This document shows positions 7,201 through 28,169 of a stretch of 64,000 bases of DNA, one piece after another (the stretch's first letter is position 1; each line of letters opens with the position of its first letter). The stretch covers positions 62,001 to 126,000 of the forward strand of contig NZ_JAGDXI010000044.1 of assembly GCF_023256325.1 (NCBI RefSeq), read 5' to 3'. Both the position numbers and the translations under genes were made by a program. The notes under the pieces were generated by a model, which searched no databases, was not told the DNA's origin, and worked only from the letters and a program-made list of their open reading frames with translations. The stretch comes from Caldisphaera sp. Its GTDB lineage: Archaea; Thermoproteota; Thermoprotei_A; Sulfolobales; Acidilobaceae.

Positions 7201-8589
7201 GTGGCTTCCTATAAGGATCTATCAGAAAGAATAGCAGATTGGGCAGTTAACCTTTCATATAAAAATATTCCAAATAATGTAATAGAAGAAGCAAAGAAAA
7301 GAATTTTAGATACTTTTGGTGTCGCTATAGGAGCATTTAATGAAGAGCCTGTTACTATAGCTAGATGGGTAGCCGAGTCTTCTTCAAGTTCAAGGCTTTC
7401 TGCCACAATATGGGGCACTGATAGAACAGGTCCAGCAGATCATGTTGATTTCGCTAATGGTTGCGCTTCTAGATTCTTTGATTTCATGGACACATACCTC
7501 TCTAAGGAAGCATTACATCCCAGCGATAACCTACCAGCAATTATAGCAGCAGCAGAAATTGCAAAAGCAGATGGCAAAAAAATATTAGAAGGTATGGTCG
7601 CAGCATATGAAGTTACAGCAAGGCTCGCAGATGCATATAGTGTAAGAAGCAAAGGATGGGACCACGTTGTGTATATAGCTATAGCATCATCGGTTGGGGC
7701 AGGAAAAGTACTTGGATTGGATAGAGATCAAATGTTGCAAGCTATAAACCTTGCTACAGTAAATTCTTTAGCTTTAAGGCAAACAAGAGCTGGAGAGCTT
7801 AGCATGTGGAAAGGATGTGCCGCGGCAAATGCATCTAGAAATGGATTATTTGCCGCTATATTAGCGTATAGAGGTATGAGGGGACCATCGCCAATATTTA
7901 GTGGGGAATATGGATTTTTCAAAGTAGCATTAAATGGAGATAAGTTTGATATACCAAAAATGGGAGGAGAGGAAAACGAGCCATTTAAACTGCTAGAAAC
8001 CAGCATAAAATATTGGCCTGTTGAATATCATGCAATGAGCGCAGTAGATGCTGCTCTAAAAATTAGAGAAAAAACAGGTTCATTAAAGCCTGATGATATA
8101 AAAGAAGTTAATGTTAAGACTTTCCAAGTCTCATATAACATAATCGCTAAGGATCCAGAAAAATGGGATCCTAAAACTAGAGAAACTGCAGACCACAGCC
8201 TGCCATATATAGTTGCTGCTGCCCTACTTGATGGTAAAGTTTGGCTTGATACTTTCTATGAAAACAGATATCTAGCCGATGATGTAAGACAAGTTTTAAA
8301 GAAAATGAAAGTAGAAGTTGATCCAGAACATGATAAGTTATATCCAACAGGAATTAAAAACACAATATCAATAAAGCTATCAGATGGAAGAACCATAGAA
8401 GAAAGCAGCACATATCCACCTGGTCACTTTAAGAATCCATTAAGCAGAGAAGGAGTTGTAGATAAGTTCTTAAAGGTAACTGAAGGGAAATTATATAAAA
8501 GAAATGCAAAGCAGTTCATAGATACTGTATGGAGTATAGAAAAGTGTATGAATATAAGTAAAGCATTAGCCCTTTTAAAAACAAAGTAA
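7201..8589 (+). CDS. MmgE/PrpD family protein (2-methylcitrate dehydratase-like)
   Basis: 462 residues of the MmgE/PrpD family, named for 2-methylcitrate dehydratase, although other members act on other substrates. Seen: the helical N-terminus with AKKRILDTFGVAIGAF, the ASRFFDFMDTYLSK segment, HPSDNLPAI, the GCAAANASRNGL turn and YPVEYH-like WPVEYHAMSA, all typical. The start is GTG, 6 nt after GGTGA. A role in propionyl-CoA or branched acid disposal fits the acyl-CoA dehydrogenase nearby, but no citrate synthase or methylisocitrate lyase lies in this window, so the substrate is uncertain. Confidence 0.88.
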   Translation: MASYKDLSERIADWAVNLSYKNIPNNVIEEAKKRILDTFGVAIGAFNEEPVTIARWVAESSSSSRLSATIWGTDRTGPADHVDFANGCASRFFDFMDTYLSKEALHPSDNLPAIIAAAEIAKADGKKILEGMVAAYEVTARLADAYSVRSKGWDHVVYIAIASSVGAGKVLGLDRDQMLQAINLATVNSLALRQTRAGELSMWKGCAAANASRNGLFAAILAYRGMRGPSPIFSGEYGFFKVALNGDKFDIPKMGGEENEPFKLLETSIKYWPVEYHAMSAVDAALKIREKTGSLKPDDIKEVNVKTFQVSYNIIAKDPEKWDPKTRETADHSLPYIVAAALLDGKVWLDTFYENRYLADDVRQVLKKMKVEVDPEHDKLYPTGIKNTISIKLSDGRTIEESSTYPPGHFKNPLSREGVVDKFLKVTEGKLYKRNAKQFIDTVWSIEKCMNISKALALLKTK

Positions 8590-17315: not shown

Positions 17316-17371
<56 letters not shown>

Positions 17372-18374: not shown

Positions 18375-20396
18375 TTGCCCTCTATAGATAAAATAAAGAC
18401 AATTTTGGTAATAGGAGCAGGTACTATGGGTCATGGAATAACTGAATTAGCAGCTATTGCAGGATATAAAGTTTACATTGCTGATATAAATAACGAAATT
18501 ATTAAAAGTGGTTTAGAAAAAATCAAATGGAGCCTATCAAAATTACATGAAAAGGGTAGCCTAAAAGAAAGCGTTGATTCTGTTATGTCAAGAATTATAC
18601 CTGTTGTTAATACGGACTCTCAAGGAAACTTCACAAAAGATTTTGAAAATGCGATAAAAGATTCAGACATGTTTATTGAGGCCATTCCAGAAAGGCTAGA
18701 TCTAAAGCAAAATTTATTTAAATTTATAGATAAAAATAGGAAAGCCGATACAATAATGGCAACAAATACGAGCAGTCTTCCTATTACAGAGATAGCTGCA
18801 GCAACATCTGCACCTGAGCTTGTTGTAGGAATGCATTTCTTTAATCCACCACCATTAATGCCTTTAGTCGAAATAATAAAGGGAGAAAAGACATCTGATG
18901 AAACGGTTTCTGTTACATACCAAATAGCTAAGAATTTTGGAAAGCAGCCTGTTATAGTTAAGAAAGATGTGCCAGGGTTCATTGCTAACAGGGTATTAGC
19001 AAGATTTTTGAACACAGCTTGTTGGCTAGCATATAAAGGCTTTTATTCAACATTAGAAATAGATTCTGCTGTAAGATACGGTCTAAACTTCCCTATGGGT
19101 GCTTTTGAGCTAGCAGACTATAGCGGCATAGATGTCTTCTATTTTGTTAACAAAGCGATGATAGAAAGAGGCTTTAAGATGAAACACTGTCCTTTATTCG
19201 AACAAAAGTTTAATGCAAAAGAACTAGGAATGAAAACCGGAAAAGGATTTTATGAATATCCAAAACCCGGAGCTTATGTTAGACCTCAAATACCAAAAGA
19301 ACTAGCAAACAAAGTAGACCCTGTTTTACTTTTGGCCCCAGCTGTTAATGAAGGCGCATGGCTATTAGAAAATGATGTTGCAACAAAAGAAGATATAGAT
19401 AAAGCTGTTATGTTAGGCTTAGGATGGCCTAAGGGATTATTTGAATTTGCAGATGATTTTGGTATAGATAAAATAAATACAGCATTAAAGCAACTAAAAG
19501 ACCTGCTTGGAGATCAAGATTTTGAACCTACAAAAATGCTAAAAGATATGGAATCAAAAAACGAGCTAGGAAGAAAAACCGGAAAAGGATTTTATGAATA
19601 TAAAAAAATAGAAGAGGTAAGTAAAAAAACAATATTAATAAAATATGAAAAACCAATTGCTTGGATAGTTTTAAACAGACCAAATAGACTAAATGCCATA
19701 TCTCCTGACATGATAAAGGAGCTTGGAGAAGCCCTGGATGAATTGGAATTAAACGACGATATAAGAGTTTTAATAATAACAGGTGCTGGAAGGGCTTTTA
19801 GTGCAGGTGCTGACGTAACGGCATTTGCGGGTATAACACCAATGCAAGCCGCCATATTTTCTAAGAAATTCCAGGAATTAACATTAAAGATGGAATTTTA
19901 CGCCAAGCCCATTATCATAGCAATTAATGGATATGCATTGGGCGGAGGTCTTGAGCTATCGATGAGCGGAGATATAAGAATAGCGTCAGAAAATGCATTA
20001 CTTGGCCAGCCGGAGATAAACTTAGGATTTATACCTGGAGCTGGTGGAACGCAAAGGCTTCCTAGGTTAGTTGGAAGAGGCCAATCAAAACTATTAATTT
20101 TCACTGGAGACAACATATCAGCAAAAGATGCATACGCATTAAAGCTCATTGATAAAGTAGTTCCTCCTGAAAGATTAGAACAAGAAGCAAGAGATTTAGC
20201 TCTAAAAATTTCAGAAAAGCCACCATTAGCATTAATGGCTGCAAAGCTTGCCATAGAACAAGGACTCGAAAGCAACATATGGGCTGGATTAAACTTAGAG
20301 GCAAACCTATTTGGTTTATTATTTAGTACTGAAGACGTTGCTGAAGGAGTTACTGCATTCTTAGAAAAGAAGAAACCTTCATTCAAAGGTAAATAA
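18375..20396 (+). CDS. Bifunctional 3-hydroxyacyl-CoA dehydrogenase / enoyl-CoA hydratase
   Basis: 673-residue fusion. N-terminal NAD-binding 3-hydroxyacyl-CoA dehydrogenase: GAGTMGHGITELAAIAGY near residue 15, catalytic His in GMHFFNPPPLMPLVE, and GFIANRVLARFLN. There are two C-terminal dehydrogenase repeats, each ending KTGKGFYEY. The crotonase domain starts near 415 with ITGAGRAFSAGADV (oxyanion hole) and PEINLGFIPGAGGTQRLPR (catalytic Glu). The family includes the crotonyl-CoA hydratase/(S)-3-hydroxybutyryl-CoA dehydrogenase of crenarchaeal 4-hydroxybutyrate cycles, but it equally serves beta-oxidation. No 4-hydroxybutyryl-CoA dehydratase is in the window. The start is TTG after GGGTGG. 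Confidence 0.95.
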   Translation: MPSIDKIKTILVIGAGTMGHGITELAAIAGYKVYIADINNEIIKSGLEKIKWSLSKLHEKGSLKESVDSVMSRIIPVVNTDSQGNFTKDFENAIKDSDMFIEAIPERLDLKQNLFKFIDKNRKADTIMATNTSSLPITEIAAATSAPELVVGMHFFNPPPLMPLVEIIKGEKTSDETVSVTYQIAKNFGKQPVIVKKDVPGFIANRVLARFLNTACWLAYKGFYSTLEIDSAVRYGLNFPMGAFELADYSGIDVFYFVNKAMIERGFKMKHCPLFEQKFNAKELGMKTGKGFYEYPKPGAYVRPQIPKELANKVDPVLLLAPAVNEGAWLLENDVATKEDIDKAVMLGLGWPKGLFEFADDFGIDKINTALKQLKDLLGDQDFEPTKMLKDMESKNELGRKTGKGFYEYKKIEEVSKKTILIKYEKPIAWIVLNRPNRLNAISPDMIKELGEALDELELNDDIRVLIITGAGRAFSAGADVTAFAGITPMQAAIFSKKFQELTLKMEFYAKPIIIAINGYALGGGLELSMSGDIRIASENALLGQPEINLGFIPGAGGTQRLPRLVGRGQSKLLIFTGDNISAKDAYALKLIDKVVPPERLEQEARDLALKISEKPPLALMAAKLAIEQGLESNIWAGLNLEANLFGLLFSTEDVAEGVTAFLEKKKPSFKGK

Positions 20397-20459: not shown

Positions 20460-20559
20460 AGCCGGGTCGTCTAGCGGCCCAGGATGCGGGGCCTTGGATG
20501 GCTTTCAGGTAGCCAAAGGAACCCCCGTGACCGGGGTTCGAATCCCCGCCCGGCTACCA
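20460..20559 (+). tRNA. tRNA-Gln(TTG) with a 24-nt intron
   Basis: Acceptor AGCCGGG pairs with CCCGGCT, and the discriminator A and CCA are encoded. The D arm resembles Glu/Gln tRNAs and the T arm is CGGGG-TTCGAAT-CCCCG. The anticodon stem CGGGG/CCCCG is interrupted after position 37 by an intron. Removing it gives the loop CC-TTG-GC, anticodon TTG, so glutamine. Position 33 is C instead of the near-universal U. The discriminator A and 5' A fit archaeal tRNA-Gln. It is followed within 3 bp by the stop of the convergent dtdA gene. Confidence 0.9.
20498..20521 (+). other. tRNA intron with a perfect bulge-helix-bulge
   Basis: Intron at canonical position 37/38. The outer helix CGGGG/CCCCG, a 3-nt bulge AAC, a 4-bp central helix CCTT/AAGG, a 3-nt bulge GGA and an inner helix TGGCT/AGCCA with loop TTCAGGT form the structure cut by archaeal splicing endonuclease, with cuts GG^A and AA^C. 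Confidence 0.88.
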
Positions 20560-26857: not shown

Positions 26858-27316
26858 TTATATTTTCTTCTTTTTAACTAATGCTACAACTAATACAATT
26901 ATTACTAAACCGATTGTTATAAAAGGCAAATAATTTATTATTTTTATGGACTGTAGTAAGGTTGATAATGATAACTTGGCATGTGCTAATGGTATGAAAG
27001 TAATAATTCTGGTTGTATTTCCTGTTACTACTATTATTCCTGTTGAAGGTACAGAAAAATAATCATTAACCTGATTTATAATATATAGGTGACTTCCTTT
27101 TGAGACTTTTAATACTATTCGAGAAGAATTAGAAAAATTTGTCACGTTATCCAATGTAACATACCATGTAGTATCTTTAGGCAAACCTATTTCTTCAAAT
27201 GTAATATTATATGTTTTGTATTCACTTTCTTGCGGATACTTTAAAGGTAAGAAATCTGTATTGTTAACCCAAATACTATAGACATTATCGCATATATCTG
27301 CTTTCACATCATGCAT
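26858..27316 (-). CDS. Short surface protein with GLP-x-x-T-x-W motif and C-terminal anchor
   Basis: 152 residues. After about 30 unassigned residues there is one extracellular beta-sandwich unit with the motif ITFEEIGLPKDTTWYVTL, widespread in thermopsin-like and other surface proteins of thermoacidophilic archaea, with several N-glycosylation sequons. A single membrane helix (LPFITIGLVIIVLVVALV) and a KKKKI tail follow. No signal peptide is visible, so either the protein inserts by its tail or this is the remnant C-terminus of a larger surface protein. It is the last gene of a three-gene minus-strand cluster. Confidence 0.7.
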   Translation of the reverse strand: MHDVKADICDNVYSIWVNNTDFLPLKYPQESEYKTYNITFEEIGLPKDTTWYVTLDNVTNFSNSSRIVLKVSKGSHLYIINQVNDYFSVPSTGIIVVTGNTTRIITFIPLAHAKLSLSTLLQSIKIINYLPFITIGLVIIVLVVALVKKKKI

Positions 27317-27376: not shown

Positions 27377-27724
27377 TTACGGTTTTGTCAAATTTAAAAA
27401 ATACGTTTTCTTATTAGATACTATGTGAACCGGATTGTTAAAATCGTTAAAAGTAACTGTTAAAGTAGCTGTTCTGCAAATAACTGATATATTATAATAC
27501 TTATTATTAGGTAAAATTAATTTAAATGTATAATTTTTAACCTGTGCAATATATGTACTATTATTGTTATAAAATATTATTTCAAATGGATTATTACATA
27601 GTTCGACTACACCAGTTACGTTTACTTCTTTAATGGGTTTATTAAACTCGTAGTAAGCAACAAAGATAAATATTATTAATAAAACGACTCCAATTATAAT
27701 AGCAATTCTAATAGAGATTCTCAT
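27377..27724 (-). CDS. Signal-anchored extracellular small protein
   Basis: 115 residues, unknown. One N-terminal membrane helix (IAIIIGVVLLIIFIFVAYY) is followed by a beta-rich outside domain of about 85 residues containing two cysteines (VELCNNPFEI and ISVICRTATL) and five or more N-glycosylation sequons. It resembles a minimal carboxypeptidase-regulatory-like beta sandwich, but I cannot confirm this. It starts 31 bp downstream of the 40-aa Cys-rich peptide gene and 60 bp upstream of the anchored surface protein, all on the same strand, so they are probably one transcript. Confidence 0.7.
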   Translation of the reverse strand: MRISIRIAIIIGVVLLIIFIFVAYYEFNKPIKEVNVTGVVELCNNPFEIIFYNNNSTYIAQVKNYTFKLILPNNKYYNISVICRTATLTVTFNDFNNPVHIVSNKKTYFLNLTKP

Positions 27725-27755: not shown

Positions 27756-27878
27756 CTAACATACAGGGCAATAATTGCAACAACAGGTAGCGCAATCACT
27801 GTCAGTAGCGCATGGTTTTGAATTATCTATGCTTTCTCTTAAAAACTTAGGAATTTTTGCAACAGAATTGCTATGCAT
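27756..27878 (-). CDS. 40-aa cysteine-rich peptide, possible RiPP precursor or metal-binding peptide
   Basis: Not in the ORF track because it is short. The translation has a 22-residue N-terminal part without Cys (MHSNSVAKIPKFLRES then IDNSKP) and an 18-residue end, CATDSDCATCCCNYCPVC, with seven cysteines. An in-frame TAA directly precedes the ATG, fixing the start, with GGTG about 13 nt upstream. The bipartite layout resembles leader plus core of ribosomally made modified peptides. A metallothionein-like or disulfide-knotted peptide is equally possible. No signal peptide and no modification enzyme is visible next to it. Two membrane-associated genes follow on the same strand. Confidence 0.65.
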   Translation of the reverse strand: MHSNSVAKIPKFLRESIDNSKPCATDSDCATCCCNYCPVC

Positions 27879-28169
27879 TTATATTAACACCGTCTTGGAA
27901 TGTAATAGGTAACGATAATAAATATTGTTCATGAAAAATATATAACATAGAAATCTAAGCAGATAGACATCTTAAAAACCAAATATACATATTATATTAA
28001 TTATTTTTAAAATTTAAAAACTTCTAGATAATTAAAAAGGAAAACGTGAAAAAATTGATCTATTTTATTAAATTGCTATTTAGCAAAAGGTTATGCGATT
28101 AATAAACAACAATATACATATTAAATGCTTTTTATCATTTTTTAAACCAAATTAATAAGGGGAGTAAAC

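What the first reader, a model, noticed from the sequence alone, without database searches (positions are those of the whole stretch)
27756..27878. Unlisted 40-aa peptide with seven cysteines in its last 18 residues, upstream of two surface-protein genes
Seen: a minus-strand ORF with an in-frame stop just before its ATG. A Cys-free N-terminal 22 residues leads to CATDSDCATCCCNYCPVC. The layout looks like leader plus core of a ribosomally made, modified peptide, or a metal-binding micropeptide. It precedes two small membrane-anchored extracellular proteins on the same strand. No homologue or modification enzyme is recognised here, so this may be an undescribed peptide system.
Basis: partly seen in the sequence, partly recalled or inferred. 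Interest (0 to 1): 0.85.

Follow-up and report, generated by a model that had tools for sequence, protein, structure and literature searches.

The report
Genus-specific cysteine-rich mini-protein and membrane partner
A heat- and acid-loving archaeon carries a real but previously unlisted 40-residue, cysteine-packed mini-protein gene, found just ahead of a gene for a small membrane-anchored surface protein; only one close relative shares the pair, and nothing shows that the peptide is an antibiotic-like modified peptide.

Summary
The 40-aa ORF at 27878-27756(-) exists as described and is more than chance. A relative in the same GTDB genus (Hestiella acidicharens, WAJZ01) carries the same motif, C-x2-DSD-C-x2-CC-x-N-[YF]-C, twice. 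Both copies lie directly upstream of an orthologue of the window's next gene (27724-27377, 115 aa; 42% identity, E=2e-18). Five of the ten conserved motif codons differ only synonymously. So the real unit is a two-gene cassette: cysteine-rich mini-protein plus single-pass surface protein with a predicted beta-sandwich.

The cassette was found nowhere else in the collections searched. It sits at different chromosomal sites: between guaA and guaB here, near hemB in Hestiella. G054 (probably C. lagunensis) has only a frameshifted partner gene, after its 23S rRNA.

The "leader plus core" RiPP reading is weakly supported. The supposed leader is not conserved, and in Hestiella the motif ends a longer two-module protein. 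No YcaO was found; SPASM radical-SAM proteins are not linked to the peptide. The "second surface protein" (27316-26858) looks like a gene remnant.

Best guess: a disulphide-stapled mini-protein, perhaps oxidised by the genome's protein disulphide oxidoreductase, acting with its membrane partner. Function is untested.

The parts
27756..27878 (-). 40-aa cysteine-rich mini-protein gene (leader-like 22 aa + CATDSDCATCCCNYCPVC)
   Evidence: orthologous motif upstream of the same partner gene in H. acidicharens
27759..27812 (-). codons of the conserved Cys-rich C-terminus, residues 23-40 (C-x2-DSD-C-x2-CC-x-N-[YF]-C-P)
   Evidence: 10 identical residues out of 17 aligned positions; 5 of these 10 codons differ synonymously
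27377..27724 (-). 115-aa partner: N-terminal transmembrane helix (5-27) plus extracytoplasmic beta-sandwich; starts 31 bp after the peptide stop
   Evidence: (AlphaFold2 pLDDT 79)
27879..28169 (-). AT-rich upstream region holding the presumed promoter, shared divergently with guaB (28170+)
   Evidence: read; inferred, no promoter mapped
26858..27316 (-). 152-aa ORF, probable 3' remnant of a beta-helix/NosD-like surface protein gene; not part of the conserved cassette
   Evidence: no homologue in H. acidicharens

Best explanation
The ORF is a real gene for a very small cysteine-rich protein. With the adjacent single-pass membrane protein gene it forms a lineage-restricted two-gene accessory cassette that sits at different chromosomal positions in different species. 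Shown: the ORF, its conserved motif, the conserved adjacency, the different sites, and the narrow distribution in the collections searched. Inferred: both genes are co-transcribed; the mini-protein is held together by disulphides, made either in the cytosol by the protein disulphide oxidoreductase (PDO) that the genome encodes or after release; and it works at the cell surface or membrane together with the partner's external beta-sandwich. What the pair ultimately does (binding, signalling or antagonism of neighbours) is open.
For: Two peptide copies in H. acidicharens (G190 C66 and C135), both directly followed on the same strand by the 168-aa orthologue of the window's 115-aa gene; the gap is about 10 bp in Hestiella C66 (read) and 31 bp in the window. 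The peptide core similarity exceeds every one of 5000 composition-preserving shuffles, and 5 of 10 conserved motif codons differ only synonymously. Hestiella module 1 and the partner gene show dN/dS of 0.09 and 0.21 between the two copies. PDO is present in all five genomes of the genus, in the window's genome on the same contig at C8:27486-28124, outside the window; thermophilic archaea with PDO are predicted to be rich in intracellular disulphides (PMC3177088). The partner model is one N-terminal helix plus an 8-strand beta domain. guaB and guaA lie 132 bp (G190) and 488 bp (G148) apart without the cassette.
Against: Only one relative species carries the peptide, so conservation rests on two lineages. 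Module 2, the part homologous to the window peptide, shows no purifying selection between the two Hestiella copies (dN/dS about 0.83, 10 nonsynonymous against 3 synonymous changes), and one copy is frameshifted. No signal peptide is visible, so extracellular action is unexplained. Disulphides are not tested; the AlphaFold2 model of the peptide is uninformative (pLDDT 52). There are seven Cys in the window peptide and five conserved with Hestiella, both odd numbers, so full pairing is not obvious.
Confidence: 0.4

Rival explanations
1. Metal-binding micropeptide: the clustered thiols (C-x2-C-C, C-x2-C) bind Zn, Cu or an Fe-S cluster in the cytosol, and the partner is a surface protein linked to metal handling.
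For: Dense CxxC-type spacing; acid hot-spring habitats are metal-rich (general knowledge).
Against: The C37-x2-C40 pair of the window peptide is absent in Hestiella, whose protein ends C-P-A; I recognised no metal-transport or metal-sensor gene beside any copy (by eye); no match to any Pfam or NCBIfam family.
Confidence: 0.25
2. Antagonistic (bacteriocin-like) peptide with a membrane-anchored immunity partner, spread as a small accessory cassette.
For: Patchy distribution, different chromosomal sites, two diverged copies in one genome with one frameshifted, and an orphan decayed partner gene in G054; fixed order of peptide then membrane protein.
Against: No signal peptide or exporter gene beside it; no similarity to any described family in the libraries searched; no activity data. 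The features also fit any fast-turnover accessory gene.
Confidence: 0.15
3. RiPP precursor: the first 22 residues are a leader and the Cys-rich C-terminus is a core modified by an unlinked enzyme such as a SPASM radical-SAM protein.
For: Leader-like Cys-free N-terminus; the window's genome encodes four SPASM proteins.
Against: Leader not conserved while core is; Hestiella form has two Cys modules; no YcaO; SPASM proteins occur also in peptide-less genomes of the genus and none is on the window's contig.
Confidence: 0.1
4. Chance ORF, not translated.
For: Short; another equally Cys-rich ORF in the window is spurious; only one relative species has it.
Against: Motif and position conserved next to an orthologous gene with synonymous codon differences.
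Confidence: 0.05

Closest known systems
Disulphide-rich mini-proteins (knottin, squash-inhibitor, WAP/Dickkopf-type C-x-x-DSDC modules)
   Same: Short and Cys-dense; the 'C-x2-DSDC ... CC' arrangement resembles such modules (from memory). The only PDB sequence hit was a non-significant 'PCkTDSDCnTkkC' stretch of 6any, Bm4233 (E=5.7).
   Different: No significant sequence match, no visible secretion signal, odd Cys count, fold not predicted.
RiPP precursors (YcaO- or radical-SAM-modified peptides)
   Same: Small precursor-sized ORF with a Cys-free N-terminus and a Cys-rich C-terminus.
   Different: No linked modifying enzyme recognised, no YcaO, leader not conserved.
Sulfolobicins (sulA, sulB, sulC) of Sulfolobus
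   Same: Small proteins of thermoacidophilic archaea; a toxin/immunity reading was considered.
   Different: Sulfolobicin genes are described in Sulfolobus species (PMC3718332); no sequence comparison could be made because the original paper was not held.
Prealbumin/CnaB-like beta-sandwich domains (for the partner)
   Same: Foldseek's weak top hits include such domains, e.g. in a transhydroxylase subunit and rhamnogalacturonan lyase (domain naming from memory).
   Different: All E > 0.001 and TM-score at most 0.5; no Pfam family assigned.

Membership tests
RiPP precursor | Modifying enzyme encoded in the same locus | tested here: not met
   ORFs around all copies read by eye and genome-wide SPASM search. 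Hestiella contig C135 has a SPASM protein about 7 kb away, but similar proteins are in all five genus genomes, with or without the peptide.
RiPP precursor | YcaO cyclodehydratase in the genome (azol(in)e class) | tested here: not met
   PF02624 not found in five genomes while control genomes, including Sulfolobus acidocaldarius, score.
RiPP precursor | Leader conserved across orthologues | tested here: not met
   Leader comparison p about 0.1, core 0 of 5000 shuffles; only two lineages available.
RiPP precursor | Mature peptide carries a post-translational modification | not testable with these tools
   Needs mass spectrometry.
Knottin / disulphide-rich mini-protein | Sequence match to a known family or solved structure | tested here: not met
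   No significant hit in Pfam, NCBIfam, PHROGs, PADLOC or PDB sequences.
Knottin / disulphide-rich mini-protein | Disulphide connectivity / knotted fold | tested here: inconclusive
   AlphaFold2 pLDDT 52.
Metal-binding Cys micropeptide | Conserved paired CxxC ligands | tested here: not met
   Only C23, C29, C32, C33 and C37 are shared; the last CxxC pair is not.
Metal-binding Cys micropeptide | Binds metal | not testable with these tools
   Needs purified peptide.
Bacteriocin plus immunity pair | Two adjacent genes, peptide plus membrane partner, conserved as a unit | tested here: met
   All three peptide loci found (window, C66, C135) have the partner directly downstream; this is also true of many other gene pairs.
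Bacteriocin plus immunity pair | Secretion signal or dedicated exporter | tested here: not met
   No hydrophobic stretch in the N-terminal 22 residues; no exporter gene immediately adjacent; judged by eye, no signal-peptide predictor run.
Bacteriocin plus immunity pair | Kills or inhibits sensitive relatives; partner protects | not testable with these tools
   Needs an activity assay.

The most novel reading that the evidence does not exclude
A previously undescribed archaeal small-peptide system: a released, oxidatively folded (or otherwise modified) Cys-rich peptide acting between cells of Caldisphaera and relatives, with the membrane-anchored beta-sandwich protein as its receptor or immunity factor, moving between chromosomal sites as a two-gene cassette.
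Probability: 0.15. Interest if true: 0.75.

Novelty: new variant of a known kind. Interest (0 to 1): 0.42.

Why it matters
Genes this short are easily missed by annotation, and few peptide-mediated interactions are known in thermoacidophilic archaea. The two-gene unit with a recognisable motif gives a concrete, small target: the peptide can be synthesised and its redox state, metal binding and activity on relatives tested. If it is only a lineage-specific orphan it remains a modest addition to small-protein annotation.

Tried and rejected
- Homologues of the peptide across 197 genomes of the order and 398 of the phylum: only marginal hits (E 0.002-1) outside H. acidicharens. Those examined were antisense, interrupted or in unrelated frames. 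Rejected as chance.
- Phages, plasmids and IMG/VR: no relative of the peptide in phages or plasmids, and none of peptide or partner in IMG/VR. A motif pattern scan gave 14 viral stretches; most lie in short or interrupted frames, and the closest look-alike (L116) is antisense to a longer phage ORF. Rejected as chance, though not every one was followed up.
- Weak partner hits in G264 and G428 belong to unrelated larger proteins; no Cys-rich ORF next to the first and only composition-level ones near the second.
- Homology between the two Hestiella Cys modules: not significant (p = 0.36). I do not claim a duplication.
- Window peptide against Hestiella module 1: not significant (p about 0.2).
- SPASM protein near Hestiella copy C135 as modifying enzyme: rejected, because a similar protein is in all five genomes.
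- Papers: nothing found on Hestiella acidicharens or on Cys-rich peptides of Caldisphaera.

Full report
Observation. The minus-strand ORF 27878-27756 encodes MHSNSVAKIPKFLRESIDNSKPCATDSDCATCCCNYCPVC. A TAA abuts the ATG, so the start cannot lie upstream. A GGTG lies about 10 nt before the ATG. In simulated sequences of the same dinucleotide make-up no ORF reached more than 5 Cys in 18 residues (60 simulations). However, a second Cys-rich ORF in the window (18714-18836-, 8 Cys) is antisense to a real gene, so composition alone proves nothing.

Conservation. A same-genus genome (G190; named Candidatus Hestiella acidicharens, WAJZ01) has the motif at two loci, C66 and C135. At both, the peptide is followed directly on the same strand by a 168-aa protein orthologous to the window's 115-aa protein (42% identity over 93 residues, E=2e-18; alignment). 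The aligned core is PCATDSDCATCCCNYCP against PCTKDSDCSICCFNFCP. None of 5000 shuffles, of the whole peptide or of the core only, reaches its score. Ten of the 17 positions listed from Cys23 on are identical, and five of those ten codons differ synonymously. This is what a selected protein-coding sequence gives.

Form of the orthologue. In Hestiella the motif is the C-terminal module of a longer protein: HISLPCRCGTGKYCCYCNNGVCVAMCQSGSETFEQINCFVAAGKIGACPCTKDSDCSICCFNFCPA, cut by the contig end. The C135 copy shows the start, MKEMQKKEIITIDNPEHISLPC..., behind a GGAGGT, but a 14-nt net indel puts its second module in another frame. Between the two copies, module 1 (dN/dS 0.09) and the partner gene (0.21) are under purifying selection. 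Module 2 is not (0.83; 10 nonsynonymous, 3 synonymous changes), consistent with the C135 copy being broken. The numbers are small. The two modules are not demonstrably homologous to each other (p=0.36).

Distribution. Of five genomes of the genus, only the window's and Hestiella have the peptide. G054 has the partner gene alone, frameshifted, directly after the 23S rRNA gene; its genome length matches C. lagunensis as I recall it. Outside the genus no convincing relative was found in the sampled order and phylum or in GTDB r220 genomes. Phages and plasmids hold no relative of the peptide, and viral contigs none of peptide or partner. Absence statements are limited by sampling and by the difficulty of detecting so short a protein.

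Genomic position. In the window the cassette lies between divergent guaB (28170+) and guaA (25108-26631-). In Hestiella guaB and guaA are 132 bp apart and in G148 488 bp apart, with no cassette; in G054 and G143 guaB has another neighbour. Hestiella's C135 copy lies near hemB, and the C66 copy on another contig. The cassette therefore occupies different sites in different species. One Hestiella contig ends inside the peptide gene and the other about 160 nt upstream of it, which may mean a repeat there; this was not resolved.

Neighbours. The 115-aa partner is predicted as a transmembrane helix (5-27) plus an eight-strand beta domain (pLDDT 79). Fold matches are weak beta-sandwich domains, none below E=0.001. 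The 152-aa ORF 27316-26858 is not part of the conserved unit. It has no homologue in Hestiella, and its start (DICDNVYSIWVNNTDFLPLKYPQE) resembles the tail of a beta-helix/NosD surface protein of the same genome (DICSKPYIIGVNSTDYYPLKYPQE, C21). I read it as a 3' gene remnant.

RiPP test. No YcaO was found in five genomes. SPASM proteins are present (four in the window's genome), but not on the window's contig, and similar ones occur in genomes without the peptide. The putative leader is not conserved whereas the core is. The RiPP reading is therefore unlikely but not excluded, since an unlinked enzyme could act.

Mechanism. I favour a disulphide-stapled mini-protein. The genus encodes PDO (in the window's genome on the same contig, outside the window), and thermophilic archaea with PDO are predicted to use cytosolic disulphides widely (PMC3177088). 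The DSDC/CC spacing resembles disulphide-bonded modules (from memory; the one PDB look-alike is not significant). The fixed partnership with a surface-exposed membrane protein suggests joint action at the envelope. Secretion, redox state, partner binding and function are all inferred. Metal binding and antagonism with immunity remain open rivals.

Verdict. A real, genus-restricted small-protein gene and partner that standard annotation would easily miss. Moderately interesting, with no evidence yet for a new modification system.

Noticed in passing
window 26858-27316 (-): ORF without N-terminal signal that resembles the C-terminal tail of a beta-helix/NosD-like surface protein at G000:C21; probable gene remnant beside guaA.
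   Followed up: partly
window 18714-18836 (-): 40-aa ORF with 8 Cys, antisense to a gene that reads like a 3-hydroxyacyl-CoA dehydrogenase; spurious, a useful negative control.
   Followed up: yes
L023 1358-1707 (-) (G054): Partner gene orphaned and frameshifted directly downstream of the 23S rRNA gene, no peptide ORF in front of it.
   Followed up: yes
L059 (G190 C135), peptide copy near 7655-7908 (-): Second peptide copy split by a 14-nt net indel; synonymous divergence in module 2 is low (dS 0.15 against 0.5 next door), unexplained.
   Followed up: partly
L103 and L104 (G054, G143), upstream of guaB: guaB neighbours the adenine-deaminase-like gene directly; guaA is not in between as it is in the window.
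   Followed up: no
window 20460-20559 (+) and 17317-17368 (+): ARAGORN calls an odd tRNA with a 4-base anticodon at 20460, and Rfam a marginal tRNA at 17317 (31.3 bits); either could be an unusual or intron-bearing tRNA or a false call.
   Followed up: no
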